In this document: positions 2,330 through 59,893 of the stretch, piece after piece
Numbering within the stretch: the stretch's first letter is position 1
Layout of the letters: each line of letters opens with the position of its first letter
Assembly (NCBI GenBank): GCA_029582155.1
Contig: CM055906.1
Location: 17,072,937 to 17,136,936, forward strand
Direction of reading: 5' to 3'
Length of the DNA stretch: 64,000 nucleotides
DNA from: Panopea generosa
Lineage: Eukaryota; Mollusca; Bivalvia; Adapedonta; Hiatellidae
Notes under the pieces: generated by a model
Told to the model about the DNA's origin: nothing
The model's input: only the letters and a program-made list of their open reading frames with translations
Databases searched by the model: none
Program-made: the position numbers and the translations under genes

Positions 2330-3020
2330 ATATGAATACTGTTTTATATGATTACTGTTTCATATGGTTGTATATGATTACGGTTTCATGTGATTACTGT
2401 TTCATGTGATTCTATATGATAACTGTTTCATATGATTACTGTTCTATATGATTGTATATAATTACTGTTTAATATGATTACTGTTTCATGTGATTGTATA
2501 TGATTATTATGATAACTGTTTCATGATTGTATATGGTTACTGTTTCATATGATTGTATATGCTTACTGTTTCATGTGATTGTATATGATTTTATAGCTAT
2601 ATGCTGACTGTTTCATATGATTACTGTTTCATATGATTACTGTTTCATATGATTCTATATGATTATTGTTTCATATGATTGTATATGCTTACTGTTTCAT
2701 ATGATTATATATAATTACTGTTTCATGTGATTGAATATGCTAACTGTTTTATATGATTCTATATGATTACTGTTTCATATGATTGTATTTGATTGCTGTT
2801 TCATATGATCACTGTTTCAAATGATTACTGTATCATATGATTGTATATGATTACTGTTTCATATGATTGTATATGATTACTGTTTCATGCGATTATTGTA
2901 TCAAATGATTGTATATGATTACTGTTTCATATGATTACTGTATCACATGATTGTATATGATTACTGTTTCATATGATTACTGTATCATATGATTGTATAT
3001 GATTACTGTTTCATATATTT
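2330..3020. repeat. AT-rich variable minisatellite
   Basis: About 690 bp is built from the modules tgattactgtttcata and tgattgtata in irregular order, so the effective unit varies between about 16 and 26 bp. There is no open frame. Confidence 0.9.
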
Positions 3021-3567: not shown

Positions 3568-3712
3568 AATTGACAAATTAGATTTTGCACTGCGGTCATT
3601 GCAAGCCCAGCACCAAGTGTCTGAGACAGAAAATTTGAAACGAAGTAATTTACTGGAACAAACCACTTCAGCATTGTCAATGCTGGAAAATGAAAACACA
3701 AGGTTAAAAAAG
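3568..3712 (+). CDS. Exon 1 seen here of a long coiled-coil protein (partial gene)
   Basis: This exon follows an acceptor ending ttttgcag and ends at AAG|GTGAGT. Its first base completes a codon begun in an exon outside the window; the other 144 nt encode 48 residues starting IDKLDFALRSLQAQ. Hydrophobic or permissive residues fall at a/d positions 1, 4, 8, 11, 15, 18, 22, 25, 29, 32, 36, 39, 43 and 46, an unbroken heptad pattern with Leu at 4, 8, 11, 29, 36, 39 and 46. There is no start methionine or signal peptide, so the gene begins upstream of base 1. The family is not recognised. Confidence 0.82.
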
Positions 3713-4370
3713 GTGAGTTTTATTAAGGGAGAACGGGGTAGTTACTAGGGCCAAGTTGGAAATTTAATAATGTGATAAAATAAAGGCATGAAATGAAAAA
3801 ATAAAACACTGAAGTTTTTGCTAACATGATCCTGACACACCTTTGAACTATCTACATGGATGTAAAGTATCTTGCTGCAGGACACCACACATGGTCATAA
3901 AGGGGAATTAAACTCGCGACCTCTGACCCTGCGTCTGATGCTCCTCCGCCAGACCAAGCTATTATCAAATATGTAACAAATATATTTATTTAATGCTTTC
4001 TGATGACTTGTAGAAGTTTATCAGTGACTTGTTTTTGATGATAATTTAAAATAGTGAAATTATATATGATATTTCACTGTTTTCAGTCATGTAATAAAAA
4101 AAGAAATGTTGGTTTCACTGAAATACCATTCTCGCATTTCACTCCAAAATGATATGGCCTTACACTTGTGGTCATACCACTCATAAGTTATTGTGGTGAA
4201 ACAACAAGAATATTTCACTGAAGCTGACAATTAATCTCCGTATATTATATTGATTTTTAATTTTCCGCTGTGATCTTTGGGTTATAAAACTATATAAACA
4301 AAAAATAATGCACTTGTTCTTTAAATACCTCATGACTTCTATATATGACTTGTGCTGTATGATTTTCCAG
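3713..4370 (+). other. Intron 1
   Basis: An intron of 658 bp with gtgagt and cag ends. Bases 3825-3962 look like a tRNA-derived repeat on the minus strand (reverse complement reads gcttggtctggcggaggagc, then a cgcgagtttaattcc box-B-like word). The rest is AT-rich. Confidence 0.6.
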
Positions 4371-4496
4371 GATAAGGATATGCTACGACAGGAAATACTC
4401 GTTGCTAAGGAAGCTATGGAGTTGGCACGGGAAAAATTTAGTCCGATGGAAGAACAAAACAAAAATCTCAAAGATCAAATGGAAAGAACAAAAGAG
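4371..4496 (+). CDS. Exon 2, coiled-coil segment of 42 residues
   Basis: Acceptor gattttccag and donor GAG|GTGTGG bound 126 nt in phase 0 at both ends. The 42 residues begin DKDMLRQEILVAKEAM and continue exon 1's heptads without a slip: K2, L5, I9, A12, M16, A19, F23, M26, N30, L33, M37, T40. A longer open frame runs on both sides into intron, but the splice sites and codon content restrict coding to these bases. The length is exactly six heptads, as in exons 3 and 5. Confidence 0.85.
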
Positions 4497-5573
4497 GTGT
4501 GGATCATTTTCATTTTCTTTTATCACATTGTGAAAAATTGGATGATATTTTATTATTTGTGATTGACATTTGCTGTGAAATGAGTTTAATCAAAGATTTG
4601 TTAAATATGAGTTATATATAGTAGGTGGTCCTCCACGATGTAAGAAACTGCTGTCTAATGACCTCTGACCTCTCAGGTTATAGGTTGATGTATTCCTCCA
4701 CAAAATTGTAACCTTTCATGCATTGAAATTCCCATTAGTGTGTGTTACTGGAATGTGAGAACACTGAAATTCCGCCATGTTAATTGGGTAATGACTATTA
4801 CATACCTTGTACAATGTCAACACTGAGGAAGGAAGTCAAACCCATAATGTCTTATTTCTATAATGTTTGGAATGAGTTTTTGTTAGCTCGTTAATGGTGT
4901 CCTGTACATTATTGGACAGTTAGCCATCAAAATGTCCTTACAAATACTCAAAAACACAAGTAATTACATGTACACAGTTGCAATACACACAAGTTTACTG
5001 CAGATTGTATAAGCATCAAATTTATTGTATACACAATCAGTGTTTACATTACAATATGTTTTACATGTGGCATTCTAAGTATAATATGTATCAATTCAAA
5101 ATTGAATTTTATATTTATTGCAATTCATAATTATGTTCCCTTTTAGTGCAAAGTTTATCACAAAACAAATATATTAAATGTTTGTAACATACTGTAGTAT
5201 ACAGTAAACTGTTACAGCTGTACAAAACTTGCATGGATATAATTTGCATGGATATAACTTGCATGGATAAAGGTTAGGGCATTATAAATTAATTGCTAGA
5301 TTATTACCCAACTTTTTGTTAAAAACGGGGAGGGCAGGAGAATTTTATTTTTTTTATATTTATAAAATTTTTGATGTTTTTTTAATATATATTTTTTTTT
5401 AATTATTTTTTTATGAAAATAAAAAGTTTAAGGGTGGCATGAAAATAAGAGGACGGGGTGATTGTCTAGTAATTAATTTATTATGGCCCTAGTATTCCAT
5501 TTTGAATGATAAAACTGAACTAAAGGCATTTTGAAAATGTTGAGTAATAGTTCTCTGACACTAACATTTACAG
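4497..5573 (+). other. Intron 2a, before the first micro-exon
   Basis: The intron begins at a GTGTGG donor. Apart from a 14-bp triplicate near 5224-5268 (ttgcatggata) and the MITE at 5275-5490, bases 4500-5220 show no exon or recognisable repeat. Confidence 0.6.
5275..5490. mobile_element. MITE family 2
   Basis: The ends are inverted repeats: left agggcattataaattaatt, right ttaatttattatggccct. The centre holds T/A-rich sequence and the words ggggagggcagg and gggtggcatgaaaataag. Other copies lie at 16193-16702 (interrupted) and 48276-48388 (internally deleted). About 216 bp, non-coding. Confidence 0.75.
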
Positions 5574-5594
5574 AAATTCATACTGATGAATGAG
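5574..5594 (+). CDS. Candidate 21-nt micro-exon encoding one heptad (KFILMNE)
   Basis: The 21 nt lie between a very good acceptor (branch-like ctaac, then atttacag) and a consensus donor GAG|GTAAGT. They are in phase with exons 2 and 3 and encode KFILMNE, exactly one heptad. F2 and M5 fall at the a and d positions predicted by counting from exon 2, and exon 3 continues in the same register. Skipping it would also leave frame and register intact, so a cassette exon is plausible. The call rests on sequence logic only; there is no transcript evidence. Confidence 0.65.
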
Positions 5595-5833
5595 GTAAGT
5601 CCTGCTGCAGACAACTAACTTTGTTATTTGTTATTTTATACCAACCGTCTTATTTCATTCTTGTTATATTTTAAATTTTAATAATCACACTATTTTTATC
5701 TCAGGCAATTGTTAAATGTCACTAACGTATTATATGGATATGATAATTACAGAATTTCTTGCTTCTGACTAGTGCATCCTTGGTCAAGGGACTTCCTAAT
5801 TAAATCCTCAGACCATACGATAATTAACTCATG

Positions 5834-6039
5834 GGGCCGTCCTTAAAAAATAAATTGTTGCCATGTTCCTACCTATTCACACAAAATTGCAGCTACCCAA
5901 ACTTATTTATTGACTTTCGAAAATGTTTAATTTTTCTTTTAAATGACTGCAAAATCAAAATTTAGGGGAAAAAAATATCTACCCACACGGAAAATACTGG
6001 CAGGGAGCACAGCAAACAAACATTTTTTTAAGGATGGCT
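5834..6039 (+). mobile_element. MITE family 1 copy
   Basis: Terminal inverted repeats gggccgtccttaaaaaataa and ttttttaaggatggc flank a diverged centre containing gcagctaccc and aaatgactgc. It is a few tens of bases shorter than the copy at 15334. Confidence 0.7.
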
Positions 6040-6101
6040 TGATGGTCTGGTGTAATTGTAACTTAAAAATGATTAAAATTATATGGACCAAGATGTTGTG
6101 G

Positions 6102-6388
6102 ATTAACCCTTTACTTCATATAGACGCCTTTGGACACCTCTAATATAGTCCTCCTTTGGACACCTAATATAGTCCTCCTTTGGACACCTCTAATATAGAC
6201 CCTTTGGACATCTAATATAGAAGGCTTTTGAATTATTGGCTGAATTATGTTTAAATTAACTGACAGAGTGGAGAACAGTGCAGGAAGTGTTCAGATTGCT
6301 CGTCACGAGCAATCTGAACTCTTCCTGCACTGTTTTCAAAGGCCTTCTGTGATTGGTGAAAACGCGTATCTTTGGAGTAAAGGGTTAA
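6102..6388. mobile_element. piggyBac-like MITE with central palindrome
   Basis: The element is bounded by TTAA and inverted ends ccctttacttcatat / agtaaaggg; TTAA target sites with CCC-starting ends are typical of piggyBac. Near the centre (about 6276-6332) is a near-perfect palindrome around the word gattgctcgtcacgagcaat. The left arm carries four imperfect copies of cctttggacacctctaatat. Related copies are at 33914 and 41797. Confidence 0.7.
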
Positions 6389-7467
6389 GCACTTTCCTTG
6401 TTAACGTTCCATTATAACACTTTTATTTCAATATTATAATTTAACATCTTCACTCAGTAATATACCATTGTTTAGGCTAGTTTTACTCTTTAAATGAGAC
6501 CAGGATGTACTTTACTCCCTGTAACATTAACAGATTCACTGTTTTATCATTTAATATTAAACCTTTCACTGTTTATTCTATGTTAATGTTTTGGTTTGAA
6601 TATTTACAATTGGTTTAAACAATATTTATTGTAATATTTGTTTTTATATATACATATACAAGTACATTGTATGTTGTATTTAAAAATCAATCTTAATTAA
6701 AGTTTGTGACAGACATCCCATGTGTCATTCCGACAGTGGTCACAATAGGGTACGGCAAATTCTATTCATAATGTGATATCAGTTTCAGCAAATGGCAACT
6801 ATCTGTATGTTTATTTAAGTATAATTAAACAACAAGTTGCAAAATTGGTAATAGTTCCAGGATTTTACTGTGAATCGAAAAGATGACAGTAGTCAATGAC
6901 GTTTCAGTCCTCAAGCACTAACTTGACTTAGTCCATGACAGATGCCAGCATGTAGATTTGATTTCAGATAAAAGCTCCAGTCATAAATTCTACATTGCAA
7001 CAATTTGTTTGTTGCAAAGTCATTCTCTGTCTGTTAAAAAGGGTGCGTAAAATTGTTTATGTAACCAAATCGACTGTTTTGTGATTTGAATACTGGTAAT
7101 TCTAAGTTGCATCAGAAGCAGGGGTCGCAAAATCTTATGATGTGACGATATAAACAGATCAGTAAAATGTCACTGGTTAATTTCACCTCATGATAAAATC
7201 AGTAAACTCATCAATTATGCAACATGTAATTTAGGAAGAAAACATCATGACATAGTTTTCTTTTAAATCAAGTATATTTGACACTACTGTCTTTACATGC
7301 GTTGGTCAATATTATGTTTCTGTCCTTTTATTGAGATATATCCAGCTGCAGTAGTTTGATCTGTAGATTTATGTCTGTGATCGTTTATTTTCTTTTTTAA
7401 ACATATTGTAAAAGTAACCAAGACTGTAACCTCGTACTGTTCAATTGAATATATCCAACCATTCATA

Positions 7468-7712
7468 ATGAGTGCATGGGTCCCTCAGTGGGCAAGTGAT
7501 CTAAGGTCCAATCTCTACATCCCTTCACACTGCTCAGGTCATAGGTTTGAGTCCTGCTCTGTCAAAAAACTTAATATGAGAAAGTTTGCCAGCTACATGC
7601 GGAAGGACTGGTGGTTTGGTGTTGTTTAATAGCTCTACCTCTATCAATAAAACTGAATATGTCATAAATAACCTGTCATGTGTGTTAAACCTCATTAAAA
7701 AATATATATGTA
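7468..7712 (+). mobile_element. SINE-like repeat family 4
   Basis: It shares an ordered set of words with copies near 16692, 36955, 56415, 58588 and 60945: ctaaggtc, ggtttgagtcctgctc (box-B-like), tgagaaagtttgccag, a tcttcctccac-type word, aataaaactgaatat, and a tail gttaaacctcattaaaaaa. A tRNA-derived origin is likely but the 5' head is decayed. Confidence 0.6.
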
Positions 7713-7867
7713 AGATGCTGTTTACCCATGATGTATTGTTGGGAGATTAGCTCAAATGTATCGAAAATGGTGTCAAACCCTATGATTAGACTAAGTGCAA
7801 TAATTCTCACTGTTTTCATATTCACTCAATTTTTAAAGGAATAGTATATAAATTAATTATTTTACAG

Positions 7868-7993
7868 GAAAATGAGAAAATGATGAAGAAGTCTTATCAA
7901 GTAACCAATCAGATGAGTGATTTGAAAGAACTAACAGAAAAAATGAAGGAAGAGAATGAAAAATTAGCTGGTTCATGGAAAAATCTCTCAGAG
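7868..7993 (+). CDS. Exon 3, coiled-coil segment of 42 residues
   Basis: Acceptor attattttacag and donor GAG|GTATGG enclose 126 nt in phase 0-0. The peptide starts ENEKMMKKSYQV; core positions are N2, M5, S9, V12, M16, L19, T23, M26, N30, L33, W37 and L40, the same offset from the exon start as in exons 2, 4, 5 and 6. It is rich in Lys, Glu and Met and has no proline. One Trp at 37 sits in a core position, which is unusual for a canonical dimeric coil. Confidence 0.87.
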
Positions 7994-8737
7994 GTATGGT
8001 ACAAGCAGGCAGGGGTGGTTTATTAAACATATGGCGCGGAGATTAAATAAAAATACTGTATTGTGTTCTCACCAATGAATAATAGTGGTATCACAAGGAA
8101 TATAATCGTCAAAATTACTATATCTTGCATATCGAGTTAAAAGTTTTGAATGTATACATGGTTTCCACTCAGTATAAAATAAAAATGGTAGCTTTTTTCA
8201 CTGTTCTGATAGTTTTGATTTGAAAGTCATCGTCCAGCTCCTACTTGCGTCCAATTGGTATTGATTAGCTAACGGAAACATTCTGTAGGGAATTGGCTTT
8301 AAAAAGTTGTAGTTCACCTATTTGCATATCTGATGTGTTAATTAACTTTAGGCTTCCCTCCATGAGTTTTATTTTGTGAATACTTCTGATATATTCTGTT
8401 ATTCTTAAGAAAAATAATTAGGTTAGTCAGTAATACTTCCTGCAAACAATACCGTGGTTGTGAATTTGAATATTACCTGGTCACAAGTCCCGGTGTTGAT
8501 TTATATATAACATTGCCTCTCATTGTGCTTCGTCTCCTATGGCTGATTAAAGTGGGAATGTTATCAGTTACTTGTGCAGATGGGTGTGCTCAAGTATTTG
8601 TTAACATTCCAGGATCCCAGGAAAGAGTGGTTAGGTCGACTGATCGTCTGTAAGCCCTCAATGGCATAAAAATGACTAAACATTCAAAGAAATTTAATAA
8701 ATATATTACAAAATTTGGCAATTTTGCTACATTTTAG
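7994..8737 (+). other. Intron 3
   Basis: A 744-bp intron. Bases 8465-8695 are a 5'-truncated SINE family 1 copy: gttatcagttacttgtgcag, then ggatcccaggaaagagtgg and the end ccctcaatggcataaaaatg. The rest is unremarkable AT-rich intron. Confidence 0.6.
8465..8695 (+). mobile_element. SINE family 1, 5'-truncated
   Basis: It carries the body and 3' end of family 1 (gttatcagttacttg, tgtgctcaag, ccaggatcccaggaaagagt, cctcaatggcataaaaatga) without a recognisable tRNA box A. It ends about 40 bases before exon 4. Confidence 0.65.
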
Positions 8738-8905
8738 GAGAAACAAAAGTTGGTGCGTGAAATTGACAATAACCAAGAAAACCACCGAGAGACTCGGGCT
8801 CGTGTGACGAATCTTGCAACAGAACGAGACAGATTGTTCCACGAGAAGATGGAGATGAACAGCAAATTACAACAATTGACGATTGACAAGGAACAAATAG
8901 AAAAG
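8738..8905 (+). CDS. Exon 4, coiled-coil segment of 56 residues
   Basis: Acceptor gctacattttag and donor AAG|GTAAAG bound 168 nt, phase 0-0, eight heptads. The peptide starts EKQKLVREIDNNQ and ends KEQIEK. Core residues L5, I9, V23, L26, L33, M40, L44, L47 and I54 stay in the register of the preceding exons, with a polar stretch around residues 10-20 that should weaken the coil locally. A (GATT)n microsatellite starts about 12 bases after the donor. Confidence 0.88.
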
Positions 8906-8915
8906 GTAAAGTCTG

Positions 8916-8916
<1 letters not shown>

Positions 8917-8954
<38 letters not shown>
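8917..8954. repeat. (GATT)n microsatellite
   Basis: About nine and a half perfect GATT units start 12 bases after the exon 4 splice donor. Confidence 0.98.
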
Positions 8955-8957
<3 letters not shown>

Positions 8958-9476
8958 AGAACGATACTGTCACATTAAGACATTAATTTTGTGTATCTGC
9001 ATTATTATAAATAAACAAAGTTTCCTTTCATTGAAGGAAATGATAAATTCTTTGGAAAAATGCCTGTACCATTGTGTTACTGACCACCACAACTGTCTCA
9101 TAGCATTCGAGACGAGCATTCCAACCAAGGTTGTACGAGTGAGAACTGGGTGTAATCTAGTCTGTCAGAATCAGACATCTGTGCAGATTCAAAATTGAAA
9201 TCAACAGGTGCACAGTACTGCGACAAAAAATGGTTATATCTACCTACATTTAAATGTATGAAAACTAATGTCTGTGAATGCCTTTGAGGAGATAGTATGA
9301 GTTGTTTCCCTTCAACTGTCAAACTATATGTCTATAACTGTATATAGTGAAAAAAATAAGACTGGAAGAGTTACTCCCCTTCCAAATCAATGAAAGATAA
9401 CTGTTCTGGTCAGGTAATTTGTAAAAATGTCAATTCATTGTTCATTGATATCTCTATAATAACCACAACTTGATAG

Positions 9477-9518
9477 GATTGCCGACTCCTGATGCAGAAA
9501 AAGATGACCATTGAGAAG
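9477..9518 (+). CDS. Weak candidate 42-nt exon (two heptads)
   Basis: Bases after a plain acceptor (acttgatag) encode DCRLLMQKKMTIEK, 14 residues, in phase 0-0 and in heptad register with exon 4 (C2, L5, K9, I12 at core positions). It ends TIEK, resembling the EQIEK end of exon 4. The donor AAG|GTTCAT is poor, and a second acceptor-like gatgcag lies inside, which would leave a 21-nt exon (KKMTIEK). It could be a decayed or duplicated exon rather than a used one. Confidence 0.3.
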
Positions 9519-11140
9519 GTTCATTTATTGTCACATACTTCTTTTTATTTTAATACATAACCTATACTCAGATGTTGGTGGAGAGTTTTACCTCAGTGTA
9601 GACATAGAGAAGACATTAATGTAGTTAGTACAGAAATTGAGTGTTTGTGGTATATGGGTTAATTATGTATTGTATACTTTAATTATTGGATATATTCAAG
9701 TAAGAAAATATGCGGAGATGTCAAATGTTCAGTATAGGGATTGAGGTTTGAGTTAAACCCTCATTTTCATAAGATCTTTGTATCTGAGTATTGTGTAATG
9801 AGCTAAAATATAAACATTCACTAAACTTAAGGTATTTTCGGCATTCCTGTCAGATTTTTTGACATTTGGCATAAATTATCAAAAATCTATGCACTGGTAC
9901 TATGAAGTCTTTTCTTTGCTTTCATTTGAGTTATTTTTTTTTAAATATAGTTCTGCATTTTTATGTTAGCAAGCACCCCAAGGGGTACATATTATTCTGA
10001 CATCTGTTGCTGTTTTTCCCTTAGAAAATGATCAAATTGCATACTACAAATGTAGCAGATTATTTCATAAATTGTTTTATACTCAATAGTTTTACATCAG
10101 ATTGTGAATCAAATTCTTACAACTTAGAAAACATTAATGTCAGTGTCTTTGAAGGTAGAACCAGTAGAATAATGCAGAAGGACGGTGTGTGTAGTGTCTA
10201 CTAAGATTCACGTACATGTGTCCAAGTTTTCCTCCACAAGTTAAACTGGTCACCTTGTATAACCTGTAATATGTTGAAAATGATGTTAAACCTCAATCAA
10301 AAACACACATTCACAAAACCCCAAAAATATAATTAGTAATTAAAACACATTCTAAACATTATTTTGATTTGTTTTGTAGGCTGGAAAAGTAAAACGTATA
10401 TAGTATTTTAGAAGCATTTCATTCCCTTTAGGAGGATTATATACACATTAGAAGCGCTTGGATATAAACTTGTGTTATCACCAGGGATCTCTCTCCACTT
10501 CATGTATTTGAATATATTAATGAAATTTGGCAGATAAACATATGGATACCAAGATGTGTGTAAATATACATATAATAATTAAATAAGATGTGATATATAG
10601 GACTGATATAATGATGGCTTGTTGTAGTGGCTGTTTCTTACATCAAATTTGTTTCTGGTTAAAACTGACTAATTGAAAATGAAGTACCTGTTATGAGAAC
10701 AAAATCAAACTGTAAGAATTATAGAGAATTGTCAAATTATAATGTCATGTTGTAAGGGATATTTCTAATTGAAACAATTATTTAAAAAAATAGACAATTC
10801 GTGTAAGAGAAGTTATATAAAGCATTTTCCTGAGATGTTTCAATCATAAAATCTTCACTCTAGCCTAAGATGAGTGCTTTCTGATTGCTGTTAATATTAT
10901 TATATAATAGACATTAATAATCCTGACTGCTATTTTATGACAATGTATTTCATCTTTTTATAAATATTATTCAAATGGAGAATTGAAATATCTTTATTGT
11001 TATTGTTAATATCAGAGATATGTCAAGGTAAAAATCATTTGCTATAGATGCTAATAGGAAGTTGCCAGAGTTTTTTAGATATTGACATTAATATAAAAGG
11101 AATCAAGGTTGAAGACTGGTGATTATATTTCACTTTTCAG

Positions 11141-11161
11141 CGATTAGAAATGATAGAAAAG
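11141..11161 (+). CDS. Candidate 21-nt micro-exon encoding one heptad (RLEMIEK)
   Basis: A pyrimidine-rich acceptor (atatttcacttttcag) and donor AAG|GTAGTC bound 21 nt in phase 0-0, encoding RLEMIEK. L2 and I5 fall on the a/d positions predicted from exon 4, and exon 5 then continues unbroken (L5, I9, L16, I19). It is the second one-heptad insert found in this part of the gene. The donor is weaker than that of the 5574 micro-exon. Inclusion or skipping would both keep frame and register. Confidence 0.55.
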
Positions 11162-11494
11162 GTAGTCTCCCAGAAATTGCTTTGCTTGTCTCATGACAAA
11201 TAACTGTTATAGTTTTTGCTTGCTGCAGACATTCAATAATATCTTAAAATAATCCATTTGGTGATGGAAAGCTGCCTTTGTAGATATGACTGGGAACAGT
11301 TTTATTCTCTTTTTATTTAGGAAATGCTGGGTTTACCTTAATGAACCAAACTTTGAGCGTAAAATTCAGAATTAAAATTTCCAATTTAATAGGATGTAAT
11401 TGAAATACTTTAAAAAAAACTAAAATTTGAATGGTACATTTATATCTAACAAAAAATTATTGTAAACCACTTTTGTTCACATAATAATCGTGTA

Positions 11495-11822
11495 ATTACA
11501 CAGAATCAGTCTGGCAAAATTGTGCAATTACAATGAATCAGTCTGGCGAAAATTGTGCAAATACACTGAATCAGTCTGGCAAAAATTGTGCAAATACACG
11601 GAATCAGTCCGGCAAAAATTGTGTAAATACACTGATTCAGTCCGGCAAAAATTGTGCAAATACACTGAATCAGTCTGGCAAAAATTATGCAAATACACTG
11701 AATCAGTTTGGCAAATATTGTGCAATTACAATGAATCAGTCTGGCAAAAATTGTGCAAATACTCTGAATCAGTCTGGCAAAAATTATGCAAATACACAGA
11801 ATCAGTCTGGCAAAAATGGTGA
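11495..11822. repeat. 33-bp minisatellite, about 10 copies
   Basis: Units contain aatcagtctggcaaaaattg; the period is 33 bp with one 32-bp unit. Because 33 is divisible by three, two plus-strand frames and one minus-strand frame stay open, creating spurious repeat peptides of 65-100 residues. Confidence 0.95.
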
Positions 11823-12250
11823 TTCTGAGTCTTAAAGACGAAAAGTTAGATTCATTCTGGTGCTAAGTTCCCAGCACATGCCTTTATGGAGATCCAGTGG
11901 CCATGGTCAAAACATTCCTTAGCGATTCAGAATGTTTTATAATAAATGAAGTTCCCATAATCTTTTGCTGAAATAGATAATTTATAAGCAATTGATTTTC
12001 TGGTACGGTAAAGCGTGTTCATGTGATATTTATGTGTCACCATTCAGGGTATTAACTGTTACCCTGTCCATCTGTCCATCTGTCCACACTCGCACTAATG
12101 GATATTTAAGTGTCTAGGGTTTAGGGCTAATAATTGTTTTGGACAGTTGAAAAACAGTTGAAAACAAATGGTGTTGCTAAAAAAATGGTTTTATGTGGCT
12201 AAATATAAAAACAAATCAGCTAAGATATATAGATGATTAGCTAGGTACTT

Positions 12251-12522
12251 AAGATGGCATGTTTGGTGGAATAATTACCTGTATGATACAAGACTGTAAC
12301 TTGTCAGGGGAGATAATAAAGATGGCATGCTTGGTGGAATAATTACTAGTATAATAGAAGACTGTAACTTGTCAGGGGAGATAATAAAGATGGCATGCTT
12401 GGTGGAGTAATTACTAGTATAATACAAGACTGTAACTTGTCAGGGGAGATAATTAAGATGGCATGCTTGGTAGAATAATTACCAATATAATACAAGACTG
12501 TAACTTATCAGGGGAGATAATT
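12251..12522. repeat. 68-bp tandem repeat, 4 copies
   Basis: Four units of exactly 68 bp start at 12251, 12319, 12387 and 12455, each opening aagatggcatg. Divergence is only a few substitutions per unit. Confidence 0.95.
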
Positions 12523-12649
12523 AAAAAATGAAAACTGTACTTGTGTTAGCTTGTTTGCTTATTGCGATACTATTGCTGTAATATTTTGTTTTTATTTTGT
12601 TTGTTAACTAACCAATCTTCAGTGTTATGGTTGTTACTTTTCTGGCATC

Positions 12650-12888
12650 AGTTTCACTAAACATCTGATCTTGAGATTTTCCTCAACTCAAATGTTTGCA
12701 TTGCTTGAACTCCAATAAATTTACATTGATCATTTTGCCTGTATTCCTTTACATGTTATGACTTCAATCATTTATTGTGTAATGATTGTAATGTTTCACA
12801 AGTAATCATTTGAAGAATTTGATATTTTTTGAGTTGAGGAATATCTAACCTTGAGATGTTTAGTGAAACTGACCCCAGATACTCTATT
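12650..12888. mobile_element. MITE-like inverted-repeat element
   Basis: The left end reads catcagtttcactaaacatc and the right end gatgtttagtgaaactgacc, its imperfect reverse complement, with a second inverted word cctcaactcaaa / gagttgagg inside. A diverged copy lies at 14107-14335. Confidence 0.6.
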
Positions 12889-12908
12889 TTGTACACCTGA
12901 CAAGAGAT

Positions 12909-13194
12909 TGATTGATTGAATATTGAGCGTCATTTTTATGGAATCAAGAGCTAACAGACAATCTGTTAACCTAAACACTGCTTCATGGGATCCTGAAAGG
13001 TTAACCGATACTCGAGCACACCGCATCTCCGCAAGTAACTGATAACTTTCTTGCATGAATCAGCACTGAGAGACAAATAATAATGAGACAATTTGTATAT
13101 CAATCATCACGGAGACTGTTGCTGGGCGGAAATTCGAACTCATGACCCCTGGATTGATAGTAAGACGCGCTACCGACTGAGTTAATCCGGCCAG
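12909..13194 (-). mobile_element. SINE family 1, complete, with 14-bp target duplication
   Basis: On the minus strand a tRNA-like head (box A taactcagtcggtagcg, box B gagttcgaat) is followed by the family body and the 3' end catgaaaaatgac-type tail. The element is flanked by a perfect 14-bp direct repeat, cacctgacaagaga, at 12895-12908 and 13195-13208, indicating a fairly recent insertion. Confidence 0.85.
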
Positions 13195-13961
13195 CACCTG
13201 ACAAGAGAGTGAATATATTGTACATGTATTATTGAATATGTGTGTTGCTACATTTTATGGTTTTGATTATGAAAACTTAAATTGCAAAAAAAAAAGAAAC
13301 AAAAACATGGTATAAAAAAATTAAGAAAAAAATATGGGACCGTTTTGATTACAACAAAAAATTGGCAACATTTACTACTGTTTTTATTTGGCATATGCTG
13401 CACAATTATACGTTGATGAGAACGTGCGTCTGCCTCCGTTCACATATCCGTCAGTCTGTTTGTGCTAAAACATGACTATGCTTATAATCCAACTATAATA
13501 TTGTTGTTATGGGACAGTTGATTTTGCTTTGATCATTAAAGTTAACTACATGTATAAATTATGTGTGTGTGTTACAGTTAATACAGCTTGTATTGTTATC
13601 AATAACATGCAATATTTTTGCTATTTAAATAACAGGCTTAGTTTACCATAACATTTCAAGATAAATACATACTGTGTTGTTGTAGGTTGACTGAAGTTGT
13701 CATAGAAACAAACATATTTGTGCATATCCATTTTTATTTTGAAAGGATTGTAAGTAGTACTTTGAAATGATTTGAAATAATAGCCTTGATATTGAAATTT
13801 GTCTGGTGCAATATGCCCTTTAACTATACCAATAAGTTTATTCTGGTAAAATCACAATGGTTTACTTAGCTAATGGTTTATTGCACAATTTAAAATCTTT
13901 TTATTTGTTTGTTGAGTTATTTCCCATATTAATTCAGAAACCTCTCTTGTACATTTAATAG

Positions 13962-14087
13962 ACAAAAATTGCCTTGGAGGAACAGATAGCAGAACAAGAG
14001 GAAGAATTGATGCGCATTAGAAAAGGTGTGAAACGAAAAGACGAAGACAGACGTGCGATAGAAGAAACTTTACAGGAGTCGAAGAAT
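13962..14087 (+). CDS. Exon 5, coiled-coil segment of 42 residues
   Basis: Acceptor gtacatttaatag and donor AAT|GTGAGT bound 126 nt in phase 0-0. The peptide begins TKIALEEQIAEQEEELMRI; core residues L5, I9, L16, I19, V23, I33 and L37 keep the shared register. A strongly basic patch (KGVKRKDEDRR, residues 21-31) follows an acidic one, a charge switch that could dictate pairing or partner binding. It is six heptads long. Confidence 0.87.
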
Positions 14088-14106
14088 GTGAGTTTTAAAT
14101 TAACAG

Positions 14107-14335
14107 GCCTTAGTGTTACTTAATTTCTCAGCTCAAGAATTTCCTCAGCTCAATTTTTGGAAATGCTACAACTTCATTTACATTGACCTTTTTGCATGTT
14201 ATCCTTTTTGCTTGAGTAAAGATTTGTTATGACTTCAATTCTGTTTGGTCCTTTAATGTGCAAGAAATTGATATTTTTAAGTAGGGATAAATCTCAGATT
14301 CAGATGCTTAGTGAAACTGACCTCAGGATCTCAAC
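14107..14335. mobile_element. MITE-like element, second copy
   Basis: It shares with 12650-12888 the words tcaatttttgg, gttatgacttcaat, gaaattgatattttt and the end gcttagtgaaactgacctca. It fills nearly half of the 551-bp intron between exons 5 and 6. Confidence 0.55.
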
Positions 14336-14638
14336 TTAAGTTAGATTAATATTTATTTTCAAATACCTATATAAGGGCTAATAAAGGTCCTTTCCCATTC
14401 AGGTAATATTCAGGTACCCCTGAAGTATGCCATTTCTATTGCGTTCTTTGGTTTTGATGATGTTTATTGTATTGAAATAAAAAATTTGGATATCAGGAAT
14501 CATGTTTTAAATTTTCCAATTAACAGCACATAGTGTACTCAGATATTTATCTATGCAGTTGACACCCATAGAAGACTTACATGTGAAATGATTAAAAACA
14601 TATCAAATGTAAACCACCATTAAAAATTGCTTCTTCAG

Positions 14639-14806
14639 AACTATGATGACCTGTACAAGGAGCTGTCCAATGTCCGAGCCTACTATGAGAGATCTCTGGA
14701 ACAGATCAGCGTTCTCGAGAACAACAAGCAGTTGGCGATGCAGCAGTTGGAGTTGTCGGAGCACGAGAAAGAAAGGCTACGTTCAGATAATGACAGGCTA
14801 CGTGAT
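14639..14806 (+). CDS. Exon 6, coiled-coil segment of 56 residues
   Basis: Acceptor attgcttcttcag and donor GAT|GTAAGT bound 168 nt in phase 0-0, eight heptads. Starting NYDDLYKELSNVRAYY, it has core residues Y2, L5, L9, V12, Y16, I23, L26, A33, L37, L47 and L54, making it one of the cleanest coil segments of the gene. Base composition is richer in G+C than the surrounding intron, as expected for a conserved coding exon. Confidence 0.9.
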
Positions 14807-15118: not shown

Positions 15119-15190
15119 ATCGCAGAAGGTAAATCACGAGATTTGAAACATGAGAGAGAACAGCTGGAAGAGGCGGTGCTAGACTTGAAG
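15119..15190 (+). CDS. Exon 7, coiled-coil segment of 24 residues
   Basis: Acceptor cttttatcggcag and donor AAG|GTAAGC bound 72 nt, phase 0-0. The peptide is IAEGKSRDLKHEREQLEEAV followed by LDLK. Core residues A2, L9, L16 and L23 keep the register of exon 6. The length is not a multiple of seven residues, so the strict heptad-per-exon rule ends here. Confidence 0.85.
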
Positions 15191-18465: not shown

Positions 18466-18770
18466 GTGAGCCCAGCGTGGCCTCCCTTTGTTCAGGAGCT
18501 GTCTCCCGTGCTGAAAGATTACATGTTTATATTTATATCTAATGGCTCACTGTGGCAACTTACCAATGATCATTCATTGCAACTTCGTGATTCATTTCTT
18601 TACTATATTAAACATCTGCATGATTTTTCTTCATGTACAGTGTCATGCTCTGTGCTTTATTAATATTTCAATGTTAAAAGAGGAATTTTCTTGTAAATGT
18701 CATGTGTGTGGCTTAAACATCATTTTACAGTGCCTGTCAAATGTTCATGAACTAATGGTTTCGGTCATAA
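18466..18770 (+). other. Intron stretch after the 18439 micro-exon
   Basis: Short open frames here overlap each other on one strand and have no splice-site or codon support. No feature is supported. Confidence 0.5.
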
Positions 18771-18774
18771 TAAT

Positions 18775-19275
18775 GTTATCTTTGAGGAGAAATGGAAGCA
18801 GTTGCCATGTGATAATTTGGTCACAATAAAGTCTTCTTTGAGGAGAAATGGTTGGAAGTTTCCATGTGAAAATTTGGTCACAATAAAACCATCTTCGAGA
18901 AGAAATAGTGGGAAGTTGCCTTGTGATGATTTGGTCCATTAAAGTCATCTTTGAGGAGAAATAGTGGGAAGTTGCCATGTGATGATTTGGTCCATTAAAG
19001 TCATCTTTGAGGAGAAATAGTGGGAAGTTGCCATGTGATGATTTGGTCACAATAAAGTCATCTTTGAGGAGAAAAAGTGGGAAGCTGCCATTTGATAATT
19101 TGGTCACAATAAAGCCATCTTTGAGGAGAAATGGTGGGAAGTTGCCATGTGATGATTTAGTCCATTAAAGTCATCTTTGAGGAGAAATGGTGGGAAGTTG
19201 CCATGTGATGATTTGGTCACAATAAAGTCATCTTTGAGGAGAAATAGTGGGAAGATGCCATGTGATAATAGAAAA
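18775..19275. repeat. 56/57-bp minisatellite, about 9 copies
   Basis: Units contain tctttgaggagaaatagtgg and gttgccatgtgatgatttgg. Lengths alternate between 56 and 57 bp depending on gtccatt versus gtcacaat, so two sequence types are interspersed. Confidence 0.92.
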
Positions 19276-23296: not shown

Positions 23297-23362
23297 GGTG
23301 AAATTCGTCAGATCAGACAGGAGAAGTCCAAGTCTGAGGACAAAGTTCAGGAACTGGAAATT
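23297..23362 (+). CDS. Exon 8, coiled-coil segment of 22 residues
   Basis: Acceptor gcttacattttag and donor ATT|GTAAGT bound 66 nt, phase 0-0, encoding a peptide that starts GEIRQIRQEKSKSEDK and ends VQELEI. Core residues are I3, I6, V17 and L20, with Lys and Ser at 10 and 13. Exon 9 continues in the same register (L2, A5, I9). It is highly charged and has no aromatic residue. Confidence 0.85.
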
Positions 23363-24796: not shown

Positions 24797-24958
24797 AAAT
24801 TGGAAAAGGCAAATGATGACATTAGAGAGACGACAACAATCAAACAAGGGGAGATCGACATGCTGAAGTCTACTTGTGACCGTCTTTCTGCAGGGACCAC
24901 AAAGAAAGAAACAGAGTTACAGAACCTGACTGAAAAAGTTCAGCAGACTGAGTTACAG
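24797..24958 (+). CDS. Exon 9, coiled-coil segment of 54 residues
   Basis: Acceptor tttataattgcag and donor CAG|GTATAT bound 162 nt, phase 0-0. The peptide starts KLEKANDDIRETTTIKQGEI. Heptads hold at L2, A5, I9, then L23, C27 and L30; SAGTTKK at 31-37 is a small break; L41, L44 and V48 restore the coil. It contains one of the few cysteines of the main exons, at a core position, so a disulphide-linked dimer in an oxidising compartment cannot be excluded but is not implied. Confidence 0.87.
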
Positions 24959-26509
24959 GTATATTTGTAGACTGGTAAAATGTCTCATTTTTTTTTTTAA
25001 TTTGTAACCAGTCTCATACTTTGTTGCAAATATTGTACTTTGTAACAAGTCTCATATTTTACAGCAACCAGTTTCATACTTTATAGCAAATTTAAGTCTA
25101 TCCCAGAACCAGATATCTCTCGAATCTGGTCTGTTAAACCCCAAATGAATAAGCTGGGGATTCTATGCCTGTCCCACACAATTCATACAAATACTTACTA
25201 AACTGTGATATCATTAAAACTTCCAGTTGAAGCAACTGATCAATCAACATGCTAAAATGTGACTTTCCCAACATTGCTATTTAACAGACCCAACCAGGAG
25301 AGCTGAGTCCGTTCTACAGACTATAGCAAATTTATACTTCACAAGAATGCTAATACTTTACAGGAAGTATTATACTTTGCAACCAGTCTCTTATTTTACA
25401 GGAAGTATTGTACTTTGCAACAAGGCTCATACTTTACGGCAAACATTGTACTTTGCAACCAGTCTAATATTTTCTTGAAAGTCTTTACAATCATGTAATC
25501 ATTTCATGTGTTAGACAAGATACTTGTATTTTACATATTTCTGCTTACGCATGTTATACCAACTGTCATCACTTATTCCTGCCAATGTCTCTTGTAATTG
25601 ATAACCAGTTCGACGCTATTGGTAATTGGTAAACAGTTAGACACTATTGGTTTTTGGTAACCACTTAGACACTATTGGTAATTAGTAACCAGTCAGACAC
25701 TATTGGTAATTAGTAACCAGTTAGACACTATTGGTAATTGGTAACCAGTCAGACACTATTGGTAATTGGTAACCAGTCAGGCACTATTTGTTATTGGGAA
25801 CCAGGCAGACACTATTGGTTATTAGTAACCAGTCAGACACTAATGGTTATAAGTAACCAGTCAGACACTATTTGTTACTGGGAACCAGGCAGACATTATT
25901 GTTAATTGGTAACCATTTAGAAACTATTGGTAATTGGTAACCTGTAACACACTATTGGTTATCAGTTGGACACTATTAGTAATTGGTAACTACTTTGGCA
26001 CTATTGGTTATTGGTAATCAATCAGACACTATTGGTTATTAGTAACCATAGGCTATTGGTTATTAGTAATCAGTCAGACACTTTTGGTTATTAGTAACCG
26101 GTCAGACACTATTGGTAATTGGTTACCAGTTAGACACTCTTGGTAATTAGTAACTACTTAGACACTATCGGTTATTGGTAATCAATCAGACACTATTGGT
26201 TATTAGAAACCAGTCAGACACTATTGGTTATTGGTAACCAATAAGACACTATTGATAATTAGTAACCGGTCAGACACTATTGGTTATTGGTAACCAATAA
26301 GACACTATTGGTAATTAGTAACCAGTCAGACACTATTGGTAATTAGTAACCAGTCAGACACTATTGCTAATTAGTAACCAGTCAGACACTATTGGTAATT
26401 TGGTAATTAGTAACCAGTCAGACACTATTGGTAATTAGTAACCAGTCAGACACTATTGGTAATTAGTAACCAGTCAGACACTATTGGTATATGTTTTTCT
26501 ATCACCCAG
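24959..26509 (+). other. Intron 9
   Basis: It carries short repeats of the word ctttgcaaccagtct (24990-25085, 25325-25475), a remnant at 25085-25322 shared with 55400-55720 (tctacaga and gaaagtca words in opposite orientation), and the 28-bp minisatellite. Little unique sequence remains. Confidence 0.6.
25590..26490. repeat. 28-bp minisatellite, about 30 copies
   Basis: Units read about aattagtaaccagtcagaca plus ctattggt. The array becomes nearly perfect toward its 3' end and stops about 20 bases before exon 10, leaving only tatgtttttctatcacccag as the acceptor region. Confidence 0.97.
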
Positions 26510-26589
26510 AATGACAGACTGAAGGATGAACTGAGGAATTACAAGGATGAGTGTGAGCAGCTGGCAGACCAAGTGGAAGATGTGAAGAA
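26510..26589 (+). CDS. Exon 10, coiled-coil segment ending inside a codon
   Basis: Acceptor ttctatcacccag lies only about 20 bases downstream of a 28-bp minisatellite. The exon is 80 nt, starts in phase 0 and ends after two bases of a Lys codon at AA|GTAAGA. The peptide starts NDRLKDELRNYKDECEQL; core residues L4, L8, Y11, C15, L18, V22 and V25. Together with exon 11 it gives 59 residues. The split codon AA|A is completed correctly by exon 11. Confidence 0.85.
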
Positions 26590-27244: not shown

Positions 27245-27341
27245 AATTAAGGATGAGAATCGGCGCCTCCTTCAGGAAAAAGCGGAGAATGAACAAGTGA
27301 TAAAGCTGCTAGAAACACAAAAAGAAGTCCTGTCCAAAAGT
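27245..27341 (+). CDS. Exon 11, coiled-coil segment of 32 residues
   Basis: Acceptor ttaatttttcccag and donor AGT|GTAAGG bound 97 nt. The first base finishes the Lys codon of exon 10 and the rest encodes IKDENRRLLQEKAENEQ followed by VIKLLETQKEVLSKS. Core residues are I1, L8, V18, L22 and L29. Reading on past the donor would add about 23 residues before a stop, giving a possible truncated product if the intron were retained. The next main exon lies 13.5 kb away. Confidence 0.85.
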
Positions 27342-27642
27342 GTAAGGGACTCTACCTTGTATCTAGACTTGCTCACAAGCTTAGAAAATCCTGACCAAGT
27401 GTGATGTAGCTATAGTTAATCTCTAAAAAATAAAGGATGCAAACAAATATTTATTTTTGTGGCACTGTGACACTGTCTGAACTGTAGTCGGTAGCCACGT
27501 TTATTGAGCAGCTATATGTCTAAGTGAAGGCAGCATATTGTCATTTTCCATTTATAGGGATTTAATTTCAATCAACCTCGGTTACTGATTAGATCGGGGG
27601 GAAAAATTGTAACCATGTTTCCTTGGAAGTTTTGGTATAGTA

Positions 27643-34735: not shown

Positions 34736-34764
34736 AACTACTCAAACATATAACTATACAACTA

Positions 34765-36050: not shown

Positions 36051-36857
36051 TCAAAAAGAAACTTACATAGACACGGATCCTCTGAGTGTGCTTAGGGCCT
36101 ACATCATTTGCCTCTCTGTCAGTAGTCTTATTAACACCTCTTCTAAATGATAATGGAATGATCCAAATAAGATGGAAGAATCTATTATGGACATTCAGCA
36201 AGCCAGGGGTTGAAAACTGAAATGTTAGTTTAGAATTTGCTGGTAGACCAAAAATAACAGCTATCTAACATTGTATTTCTAAATTTTGTATTTATTCATA
36301 TCATTTTGTTCTTTATTTGATTATGGTAAAAGTAGTAAGTTGACACCAAATCATGATCCAATGGAGGCTTGTCAGAGTCATGAAAATGAAGTGTTGTATG
36401 TATGGTTGTGTTTGAAATTCAAGAAACTGCACACATTGGATTCAGTGTTTTGATCAGATACAATTAGGCATTGATTCCTTGGGTTGAAATACATTTTTTC
36501 ATATGCACATCTAAAACTCAATACCATATTGTGCACATTACTTACAGGTAGTATAAACTATTGATGTCATTAATGTTTAGATTTGAGCACCTTTATATGT
36601 ATGGTATAGGGATGCACATGATTGGTTGAATTATATTTACATATTACCTATAATAGTATGTTGTTCATCTGTCTGTTTGTCTGCAGTTTCTTTTGATTTT
36701 AGGTACTCTGAACATATTTCATGGAATAAAGTTTATATTTTATTTGATACTTAAGTCTTATATAGTTTTGGATATTTCTCAGAATACGGTTAATGAAGAA
36801 GTTCAGTTCATTTATCCTGTATATTAATGGTATTTAGTAGAACCCATATTCATTCAT

Positions 36858-40866: not shown

Positions 40867-40952
40867 GCTGAGACCAGTATTGATAAACTCAAGGACATAG
40901 ACAAACTCTCCGATAAGATTGGCCAGTACAGAAGTGAAAATGAACACCTCAG
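40867..40952 (+). CDS. Exon 12, coiled-coil segment of 28 residues plus split Arg codon
   Basis: Acceptor aaatactcttttacag and donor CAG|GTATGG bound 86 nt. It starts in phase 0 with AETSIDKLKDIDKLSDKIG and ends after AG of an Arg codon. Core residues I5, L8, then I11, L14, I18, Y21 and L28; the three-residue step between L8 and I11 is a stammer-like slip. Reading through the donor adds only a few residues before a stop. Confidence 0.85.
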
Positions 40953-43435: not shown

Positions 43436-43499
43436 GAGCCGAATTGGAGAGCTTGAGAAGGTGAGAGACAATCTGATAGAACAGAAGGAGGAACTGCTG
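43436..43499 (+). CDS. Exon 13, coiled-coil segment of 21 residues
   Basis: Acceptor ccctacttatatttcag and donor CTG|GTATGA bound 64 nt. The first G completes Arg from exon 12, followed by SRIGELEKVRDNLIEQKEEL and a final L. Core residues I3, L6, L13 and L20. It lies about 60 bases after a SINE whose interior is expanded into a 39-bp tandem repeat. The joined exons 12+13 give 50 residues in phase 0. Confidence 0.85.
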
Positions 43500-43949: not shown

Positions 43950-44084
43950 GCAAACAGTGAGTTGATCTACAAAAAGCCACAGCTAGAAGAGTTAGAAGGA
44001 AAGATAGATGAACTTAGGGAGGCCAACAGACAGCTCAGGGAGATTAATGAACAGGTGAACGAGAAGGCAGAAGTCCTTGGACAG
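43950..44084 (+). CDS. Exon 14, coiled-coil segment of 45 residues
   Basis: Acceptor gataattatacag and donor CAG|GTGAGA bound 135 nt, phase 0-0. The peptide opens ANSELIYKKPQLEELEGKI. After a proline at residue 10 a regular coil runs through L12, L15, I19, L22, N26, L29, N33, V36, A40 and L43. It is the last heptad exon before the disordered linker. The Asn residues at core positions 26 and 33 are typical of parallel dimers. Confidence 0.88.
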
Positions 44085-45305: not shown

Positions 45306-45509
45306 CCTGATCAGGAGAGTGGAGACGAAGGTTTTGTCACAATAACCGAGTCACTTCCTGTGACTCGTTCTGAATCGCCCACCATGATCTCCCCATTAAA
45401 ACCTGTCAACTCAGACATTAAATCTGCAAACTTAAATCTGCAGTCTGAGAACTCGGAGTCAAATGAAATCTCTTCCATTCCCTCACAAAGGGATACAGCA
45501 GTCACAAAT
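45306..45509 (+). CDS. Exon 15, Ser/Thr/Pro-rich linker with an LIR-like motif
   Basis: Acceptor gattgtttcag opens a phase-0 frame of 68 residues ending at AAT|GTAAAG; if that donor is ignored the frame adds Val-Lys-Leu and stops at 45521. The sequence is not heptad. Residues 1-15 are PDQESGDEGFVTITE, where F10-V-T-I13 after an acidic run matches the [WFY]xx[LIV] LC3-interacting pattern. Residues 20-33 hold two Ser-Pro sites (TRSESPTMISPLKP) and residues 57-60 read SSIP, matching the SxIP form of EB1-binding motifs. These motif matches are inference. The exon probably forms a flexible, phosphorylated hinge between two coils. Confidence 0.82.
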
Positions 45510-50695: not shown

Positions 50696-51102
50696 ATGAA
50701 ATGAAAAAAGATAGAAAAGTGAATGTGACAATTATCAGAGTTGCTACTACATTAACATGTCTAACATTGTAGTGCTTGTTCAAATGTTATGAAGGAAACA
50801 GCTGTAAAGTATTGTCCTGGTTGCTTTGGACCCAGGAATTAAGTCTCATGTTTGCTGACAATCAGTTTAAGTTCAGTTAAAGTAGACAAGAATAGGATAA
50901 AAGTAAAAGTAGTAATTGAAAGTCATACTACTAAGTATTTAGTTAAGTCTACATGGTAAACATTATCTACTAGTTCCACACGTGACTTTACCACAACTTA
51001 CTCTACTATATATCCATGAACAGAACAAGCAAGGCCCAGAAGGCCTTAGATTGCTTCAGGAAGCCTTTATTCATCTCCCTCCTAAAAACCTCTTTGAGGA
51101 GT

Positions 51103-52858: not shown

Positions 52859-52926
52859 GAAAATGCCACGTTGAAGGACGCCCTTGGAGGTGATGGTTCA
52901 GTGGTTCCCAGGGTGGAATTAGAGAG
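52859..52926 (+). CDS. Exon 17, return from linker to coiled coil
   Basis: Acceptor gattctgtttcag and donor GAG AG|GTAGGT bound 68 nt: 22 residues (ENATLKDALGGDGSVVPRVE followed by LE) and two bases of an Arg codon. The first part (ENATLKDAL) looks helical, and GGDGSVVP is a loop before the next coil. The following intron holds a 5'-truncated LINE. The split codon AG|A is completed in exon 18. Confidence 0.82.
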
Positions 52927-55957: not shown

Positions 55958-56085
55958 ACTAACCCGGGAGAAGGAAAGACTTCAGAGTGATTATGAACAT
56001 ATGAAACAGGAACACGAGAATCTCGAGGAGCGACATCAGAGATTTATCATCCAGTACGGACATGAAGGATCTGATGCACAGAAAG
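55958..56085 (+). CDS. Exon 18, coiled-coil segment of 42 residues
   Basis: Acceptor tttatttatatcag and donor AAAG|GTATTT bound 128 nt: one base closing Arg, 42 residues, and one base opening Asp. The peptide begins LTREKERLQSDYEHMKQEHE. Core residues L1, L8, Y12, M15, H19, L22, H26 and F29; the coil fades in IIQYGHEGSD (residues 30-39). His is unusually common (five or six residues). The opening LTREKE also occurs in exon 19. Confidence 0.87.
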
Positions 56086-56833: not shown

Positions 56834-57011
56834 ATAAGGAGACGATAACAGCCTTGACAAGGGAAAAGGAAGCGTTGGAAAAGACTGTTGCTCTCATAAA
56901 TGGTCAGATGTTACTGGTAGAGGGAGGTAAAAAGCGTCTTGATGATGTTGTAGATGATCTCCAAACAGAGATTGTCTCCCTTAGACAACAACTGGAAGAG
57001 GCAGAGAAAAA
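56834..57011 (+). CDS. Exon 19, coiled-coil segment of 58 residues
   Basis: Acceptor gattgatgtttgcag and donor AA|GTAAGT bound 178 nt: two bases closing Asp, 58 residues, and two bases of a Lys codon. It begins KETITALTREKEALEKTVAL; core I4, L7, L14, V18, I21. A Gly pair at 30-31 (VEGGKKR) breaks the helix, then L35, V38, L42, L49, L53 and A56 form a second coil. The first residues repeat the TREKE of exon 18, hinting at old internal duplication. Confidence 0.87.
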
Positions 57012-59845: not shown

Positions 59846-59893
59846 GATTGAAGAATATGTAAAACAGGAAAAAGAAAATGAAACAAAGCCAAG
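59846..59893 (+). CDS. Exon 20, short charged helix segment
   Basis: Acceptor atttttccttccgaaag and donor CCA AG|GTATGG bound 48 nt: one base closing Lys, 15 residues (IEEYVKQEKENETKP) and two bases of Arg. Both phases match exon 19 and exon 21. I1 and Y4 (or V5) continue the coil; ENETKP probably ends the helix. It is small, but it has good splice sites and an exact phase fit. Confidence 0.72.

What the first reader, a model, noticed from the sequence alone, without database searches (positions are those of the whole stretch)
3568..14806. Exons built from whole heptads in one unbroken register
Exons 2-6 are 126, 126, 168, 126 and 168 nt, all multiples of 21 nt, all phase 0, and all have core a/d residues at positions 2, 5, 9, 12, 16, 19... 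from the exon start. Exon 1 joins in the same register, so about 290-300 residues run without a skip or stutter. Any one of these exons could be lost or duplicated without disturbing the coil. Such strict coincidence of introns with heptad boundaries suggests growth by exon duplication or selection for modular splicing.
Basis: partly seen in the sequence, partly recalled or inferred. Interest (0 to 1): 0.75.

Follow-up and report, generated by a model that had tools for sequence, protein, structure and literature searches.

The report
Coiled-coil gene with heptad-sized exons
A run of five neighbouring exons in a long rod-protein gene each encodes a whole number of seven-residue coil repeats, so losing any one should leave the rod's stripe intact; the pattern is real but stops after those exons, shows no trace of exon duplication, and has a stronger precedent in chicken BG genes.

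Summary
Exons 2-6 (4371-14806) are 126, 126, 168, 126 and 168 nt, all phase 0, with core positions at 2, 5, 9, 12. Exons 1-6 each prefer the same register alone; 0 of 2000 residue shuffles match any of them. The unbroken register is longer than claimed, about 384 residues, since the start codon lies 2.1 kb upstream of the window. But the claim is selective: the next exons (72, 66, 162 nt) break the rule. Over the gene as modelled, 7 of 25 internal exons, or 7 of 12 phase-0/0 internal exons, are multiples of 21 (post hoc p about 5e-4). Exons 2-6 resemble each other no more than heptad-class shuffles, so duplication is not supported. Neutral skipping follows from the lengths; no transcript was seen. 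The decisive control, other coil genes of this genome, could not run: the search machine stayed unreachable. Whole-heptad exons are known from chicken BG genes (PMC5938342, passages). Verdict: a real local regularity, best read as inherited introns in a length-constrained rod plus chance. One lead: with one break allowed in residues 51-559, the best is a one-residue skip at 22-residue exon 8.

The parts
3568..3712 (+). Exon '1' of the finding (fourth coding exon of the model), 145 nt, phase 2 to 0, 48 full residues; ends at heptad position f
4371..4496 (+). Exon 2, 126 nt = 6 heptads, phase 0/0, first residue g, last f
7868..7993 (+). Exon 3, 126 nt = 6 heptads, phase 0/0, g..f
8738..8905 (+). 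Exon 4, 168 nt = 8 heptads, phase 0/0, g..f
13962..14087 (+). Exon 5, 126 nt = 6 heptads, phase 0/0, g..f
14639..14806 (+). Exon 6, 168 nt = 8 heptads, phase 0/0, g..f
15119..15190 (+). Exon 7, 72 nt (3.43 heptads), phase 0/0; first exon after the run, breaks the multiple-of-21 rule
23297..23362 (+). Exon 8, 66 nt = 22 residues (3 heptads + 1); best single register break in residues 51-559 is a one-residue skip at its 3' end; in-silico removal leaves no break in residues 51-533
24797..24958 (+). Exon 9, 162 nt, phase 0/0, coil-like, not a multiple of 21
26510..26589 (+). Exon 10, 80 nt, phase 0 to 2, coil-like
27245..27341 (+). Exon 11, 97 nt, phase 2 to 0, coil-like; read-through would end at a stop at 27402-27404
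40867..40952 (+). Exon 12, 86 nt, coil-like
43436..43499 (+). Exon 13, 64 nt, coil-like
43950..44084 (+). Exon 14, 135 nt, phase 0/0, coil-like, not a multiple of 21
45306..45509 (+). Exon 15, 204 nt, phase 0/0, serine-rich, not coil-like by eye
52859..52926 (+). Exon 16, 68 nt
55958..56085 (+). Exon 17, 128 nt, coil-like
56834..57011 (+). Exon 18, 178 nt, coil-like
59846..59893 (+). Exon 19, 48 nt, phase 2/2; the model continues past the window end

Best explanation
This is part of an ordinary long coiled-coil (rod) gene. Shown here by computation: an open, phase-consistent chain of exons, one unbroken heptad register over about 384 residues, and six consecutive introns all between heptad positions f and g. 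Inferred: the rod's length and register are under purifying selection, so insertions and deletions that shift the register are lost and each old intron keeps its heptad position. Introns in such a coil tend to sit after exposed, charged residues (codons ending in AG at e, f or g), which raises the odds of neighbouring introns sharing a position from 1 in 7 to about 1 in 5. The remaining coincidence is local chance or a remnant of an early repeat whose sequence similarity has gone. By arithmetic the exons are register-neutral modules, but nothing shows that the cell uses them that way.
For: Register and exon facts. The rule fails in the same gene's other coil-like exons (72, 66, 162, 135 nt, and the phase-2 pairs 98/145, 80/97, 86/64). 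No exon-exon similarity beyond heptad class in any of 10 pairs. Of 29 AG|R codon boundaries between residues 150 and 433, 7 each follow e, f and g, against 3, 3 and 2 after a, b and c, which gives a matching chance of about 0.2 (my arithmetic). Depletion of indels in coiled coils is reported for synaptonemal-complex proteins (PMC8598163, passages seen).
Against: Random placement at proto-splice sites still gives the full pattern in only about 1.5e-4 of trials, and 7 of 12 phase-0/0 internal exons are multiples of 21 (p about 5e-4), so site bias alone does not explain it. Two of the six f|g introns do not follow an AG codon (AAT|, GAT|), and the wider AG-type sites are commonest at e|f (13 of 55), not f|g (8 of 55). 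Without a genome-wide control I cannot say whether such runs are as rare as the null implies. All seven x21 exons are also multiples of 42 nt (84, 126, 126, 168, 126, 168, 42), which chance does not predict, and hydrophobic power at a 14-residue period is the strongest of 14 periodicity tests (70 of 2000 shuffles reach it); I noticed both only afterwards.
Confidence: 0.5

Rival explanations
1. The rod grew by old duplications of exons made of whole heptads, as in chicken BG tails and (as hypothesised in print) the plant MIKC K domain; the copies have since diverged beyond recognition except for length and register.
For: Lengths recur (126 three times, 168 twice) with one phase and one heptad position. 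All seven x21 exons are multiples of 42 nt. Hydrophobic power at a 14-residue period is reached by 70 of 2000 shuffles, the lowest of 14 tests. [quoted passage not shown]
Against: None of 10 exon pairs exceeds class-preserving shuffles convincingly; the best pair is 2-6, reached by 38 of 500, before any correction for 10 pairs. Charge shows no 14-, 28- or 42-residue period (443, 375 and 1037 of 2000 shuffles reach it).
Confidence: 0.2
2. Selection for modular splicing: exons 2-6 are cassette exons whose inclusion sets the rod's length without disturbing its register.
For: Removing any one of exons 2-6 leaves frame and register breaks unchanged.
Against: No transcript evidence. Their donor sites are not weak (7.3 to 8.5 on my score). 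Exons 7, 8 and 9 next door are not whole heptads (24, 22 and 54 residues).
Confidence: 0.12
3. Pure coincidence picked out of many genes: five exons in a row fall on multiples of 21 by chance.
For: P of such a run is 2.1e-4 to 1.1e-3 for 8 phase-0 exons. If a genome has about 300 long coil genes (an assumption, not measured), 0.06 to 0.33 such runs are expected per genome, and the finding was selected for its pattern.
Against: Two further exons (B 84 nt, 21 42 nt) outside the run also fit.
Confidence: 0.15
4. The gene model is wrong (exon ends misplaced, or a pseudogene).
For: No transcript, no orthologue and no family match.
Against: A 1043-codon chain with no stop, every junction frame-consistent and AG/GT; chosen sites mostly the best available.
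Confidence: 0.03

Closest known systems
Chicken BG genes (butyrophilin family), cytoplasmic-tail exons (PMC5938342 and PMC5043582, passages seen)
   Same: Exons encode whole heptads of a presumed coiled coil, with a and d at fixed exon positions; exon-repeat number can change while the coil is kept.
   Different: BG exons are mostly 21 nt (one heptad each, a few 18 or 24 nt), 27-37 per gene in the passages seen, and their first codon is split; exon-repeat number varies between haplotypes. Here exons are 126 or 168 nt, phase 0, few, and not alike.
Plant MIKC-type MADS genes, K-domain exons (PMC10178880, passages seen)
   Same: Coil-encoding exons, one of which is hypothesised to have been duplicated, lengthening the helix.
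   Different: Shorter helices in a transcription factor; no similarity between exons was found here. I did not see exon lengths for these genes.
Long coiled-coil (rod) proteins in general; myosin rod with skip residues (recalled, not tested)
   Same: Long heptad register; a single extra residue (exon 8 = 22 residues) resembles a skip residue.
   Different: No Pfam family reaches its cut-off for the stretches searched, so no named family is assigned.

Membership tests
Long coiled-coil protein gene | Heptad pattern of core hydrophobics over long stretches | tested here: met
   Exons 1-6: hydrophobic fraction at a 0.51 and d 0.66, against 0.05-0.20 elsewhere; 0 of 2000 shuffles for each of exons 1-6. 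A published coil predictor was not available; the score is my own
Heptad-exon gene of the BG type | Exon length a whole number of heptads, a/d at fixed exon positions | tested here: met
   Met for exons 2-6 (g..f) and exon B (c..b); not for exons 7, 8, 9, 14, 15
Heptad-exon gene of the BG type | Exons of 21 nt, one heptad each | tested here: not met
   Smallest x21 exon of the model is 42 nt, others 84-168
Heptad-exon gene of the BG type | Split codon at the exon junctions | tested here: not met
   Exons 2-6 are phase 0 at both ends; BG first codon is split (PMC5938342, passage)
Heptad-exon gene of the BG type | Repeated, recognisably similar exons | tested here: not met
   None of 10 pairs of exons 2-6 stands out from shuffles after allowing for 10 tests
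Heptad-exon gene of the BG type | Copy number of exons varies between alleles or species | not testable with these tools
   No eukaryotic relatives held; the genome search unreachable
Named coiled-coil family (Pfam) | Profile score above the curated cut-off | tested here: not met
   16 families listed at E<=0.05 for two stretches (687 residues of exons A-14; 118 residues of exons 17-19), none above cut-off; 11 at E<=1 for exons 1-4, none above cut-off. Exons 15-16 and 20-23 were not searched

The most novel reading that the evidence does not exclude
A rod gene whose splicing acts on the coil's register: exons 2-6 are neutral length modules, while the 22-residue exon 8 is a cassette that inserts one skip residue and so switches the rod between one unbroken register (461 residues in the stretch tested) and a form with a local defect.
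Probability: 0.07. Interest if true: 0.6.

Novelty: new member of a known kind. Interest (0 to 1): 0.3.

Why it matters
If introns in rod genes generally sat at one heptad position, exon skipping would be structurally safe in rods, which bears on how such proteins evolve and on exon-skipping therapies. This one gene does not establish that. It supplies a clear case and a simple test: exon length modulo 21 and intron heptad position across all coil genes of one genome.

Tried and rejected
Exon duplication tested by register-keeping alignment of all 10 pairs of exons 2-6: no signal. Long-range periodicity (14, 21, 28, 42, 28/3, 56/3, 35/3 residues; charge and hydrophobics, 14 tests): the lowest was 70 of 2000 shuffles, hydrophobics at 14 residues, not corrected for the number of tests. 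Proto-splice bias as full explanation: rejected by simulation, though it raises the odds. Identification through Pfam and PDB sequences (best E 0.02 and 0.013): none. I also compared the peptide, by memory and eye only, with named rod proteins and matched none; that is no test. Papers: 8 searches; of what they listed (one search showed 20 of 37; one search found none), no title or abstract start was a survey of intron position against heptad register, and the library lacks most subscription journals. The paper on MIKC exon duplication (PMC10152394) is not held.

The planned control (coil exons of other genes in this genome, through PF01576) and the paralogue search never ran.
Full report
WHAT IS THERE. 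The window lies in a 1.47-Gb genome of 39 contigs, at C13:17072937-17136936. The finding is part of one plus-strand gene that begins upstream. In L009 (10 kb directly upstream) there is a start codon at window coordinate -2106 (L009:7894), followed by exons A (258 nt coding), B (84) and C (98). Inside the window follow exons 1-19, and four more (20-23) were modelled beyond it. The model runs to 1043 codons with no stop, every junction AG/GT and in frame. Its 3' end was not found, and exons missing from it cannot be excluded. The head is Ser/Arg-rich, most of the rest is coil-like in composition, and exon 15 is Ser-rich and not coil-like by eye.

CHECK OF THE OBSERVATION. Exons 2-6 have exactly the stated lengths and phases. 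Rival splice sites were listed for exons B to 10. For exons 2-6 the near-rivals are a donor inside exon 5 (14025) and an acceptor before exon 3 (7839); either would break the frame to a neighbour. With a simple core-hydrophobic score of my own choosing, exons A, B and 1-6 each pick the same global register. Exon C weakly prefers another, exons 7-11 pick others, and later exons vary. For exons 1-6, 0 of 2000 residue shuffles each reach the observed score; for exon 7, 43 of 2000 do. A Viterbi path over residues 51-687 with register-change penalties of 4, 6 and 8 has its first break at residue 435, and with a penalty of 12 at 480. Introns 1|2 to 6|7 all lie between f and g. The exon start is therefore g rather than a textbook heptad start, which does not matter for the argument.

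HOW SURPRISING. Exons 2-6 were chosen because they fit. Over the model, 7 of 25 internal exons (all after the first coding exon A, with exon 23 counted) are multiples of 21, and 7 of the 12 with phase 0 at both ends: B, 2, 3, 4, 5, 6 and 21 fit; 7, 8, 9, 14 and 15 do not (binomial 4.9e-4 at 1/7). An earlier count without the exons beyond the window was 6 of 11, giving p = 0.002 at 1/7 and 0.012 at 1/5. Random placement of six introns gives five exons of whole heptads in 5e-5 (uniform, 40000 trials), 1.5e-4 (46 loose proto-splice sites, 20000 trials) and 0 of 20000 (31 AG|R sites, a set that lacks the real introns after exons 5 and 6). A run of five among eight phase-0 exons has probability 2.1e-4 to 1.1e-3. 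For one gene that is unlikely. For the best of about 300 coil genes (a number I assume, not one I measured) it is not out of reach. The control that would settle it, exons of other coil genes in the same genome, could not be run: the genome search answered and no later request.

DUPLICATION OR NOT. If the exons were copies of one another, register-keeping alignments should beat shuffles that keep residues within heptad classes. All 10 pairs of exons 2-6 were tested; between 38 and 495 of 500 shuffles reach the observed score, the best being pair 2-6. Of 14 tests for longer periods, the lowest shuffle count was 70 of 2000, for hydrophobics at 14 residues; charge gave nothing below 172 of 2000. 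Recent duplication is therefore not supported; ancient duplication is not excluded. All seven x21 exons are also multiples of 42 nt (14 residues), noticed after the fact; together with the weak 14-residue hydrophobic signal this is a lead for the duplication reading, not evidence.

MODULARITY. Deleting any one of exons B and 2-6 in silico leaves the same two register breaks and the same frame. This is arithmetic, not evidence of use.

AN UNEXPECTED LEAD. Residues 51-559 (exons A to 10) are best described, with one break allowed, by one register plus a single one-residue skip. The skip starts at residue 480, the exon 8|9 junction, tied with residue 479; the next best places include the exon 7|8 junction at residue 458 (score 142.9 against 107.1 with no break). 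Exon 8 has 22 residues, three heptads plus one. Removing it in silico gives no break over the remaining residues up to 533 (461 residues). With two breaks allowed, a different solution (433 and 485-498) scores 8.2 units higher (151.1), and the Viterbi path over this stretch prefers two breaks up to residue 533 at penalties of 4-8 and one at 12, so the skip reading is one of two. Agreement of one exon with a continuous register has a 1 in 7 chance. I report it as a prediction: if exon 8 is alternatively spliced, it would add or remove a skip residue.

COMPARISON WITH WHAT IS KNOWN. [quoted passage not shown] PMC5043582, passages). [quoted passage not shown] The present gene shares the principle but not the unit size, the repeat similarity or the split codon. 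In plant MIKC MADS genes a coil exon is hypothesised to have been duplicated, elongating the K domain (PMC10178880, passages). Depletion of indels in coiled coils is reported for synaptonemal-complex proteins (PMC8598163, passages), which supports the inferred mechanism for keeping intron position and register together. Eight paper searches listed no title or abstract start that is a general survey of intron position against heptad register; one search showed 20 of its 37 papers.

IDENTITY. The protein could not be named: no Pfam model reaches its cut-off for the stretches searched (687 residues of exons A-14, 118 residues of exons 17-19, and exons 1-4 apart), and PDB sequences give at best E 0.013 for exons A-14 and 0.02 for exons 1-4.

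VERDICT. The strong claim ('strict coincidence', growth by duplication or selection) is only partly supported. Most likely it is an ordinary rod gene with inherited introns in a length-constrained coil and an unusually regular stretch.

Noticed in passing
window 23297-23362: Exon 8 (22 residues) is the one exon of those tried (B, 2-9) whose removal leaves no register break over exons A-9; a candidate cassette exon adding a skip residue.
   Followed up: partly
window 27245-27404: Exon 11 read past its donor continues 20 residues to an in-frame stop, a possible short isoform end.
   Followed up: no
window 3960-4149: The intron after exon 1 carries a dispersed repeat: of 40 scored places in the genome for the 633-base query (245 candidates), one is the window itself and 38 of the other 39 lie on this stretch, 71-85 percent identical.
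   Followed up: no
window 27742-29720, 34756-36051, 25594-26489, 51102-51685, 18755-19266, 11486-11821, 2330-3016: Introns hold many tandem arrays: 64-bp x 30.7, 56-bp x 23.1, 28-bp x 32.1, 45-bp x 13.0, 57-bp x 9.0, 33-bp x 10.2, 42-bp x 15.5.
   Followed up: no
window 53549-54540: A stretch with long partly open frames that looks like the end of a retrotransposon reverse transcriptase, judged by eye from the sequence and from memory; not tested.
   Followed up: no
window coordinates 76379-76420 (beyond the window, L014:2379-2420): A 42-nt phase 0/0 exon (14 residues, with a proline) further along the gene, again a multiple of 21 but not clearly coil.
   Followed up: partly
exons B, 2, 3, 4, 5, 6, 21: All seven exons that are multiples of 21 nt are also multiples of 42 nt; noticed after the fact, unexplained.
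   Followed up: no
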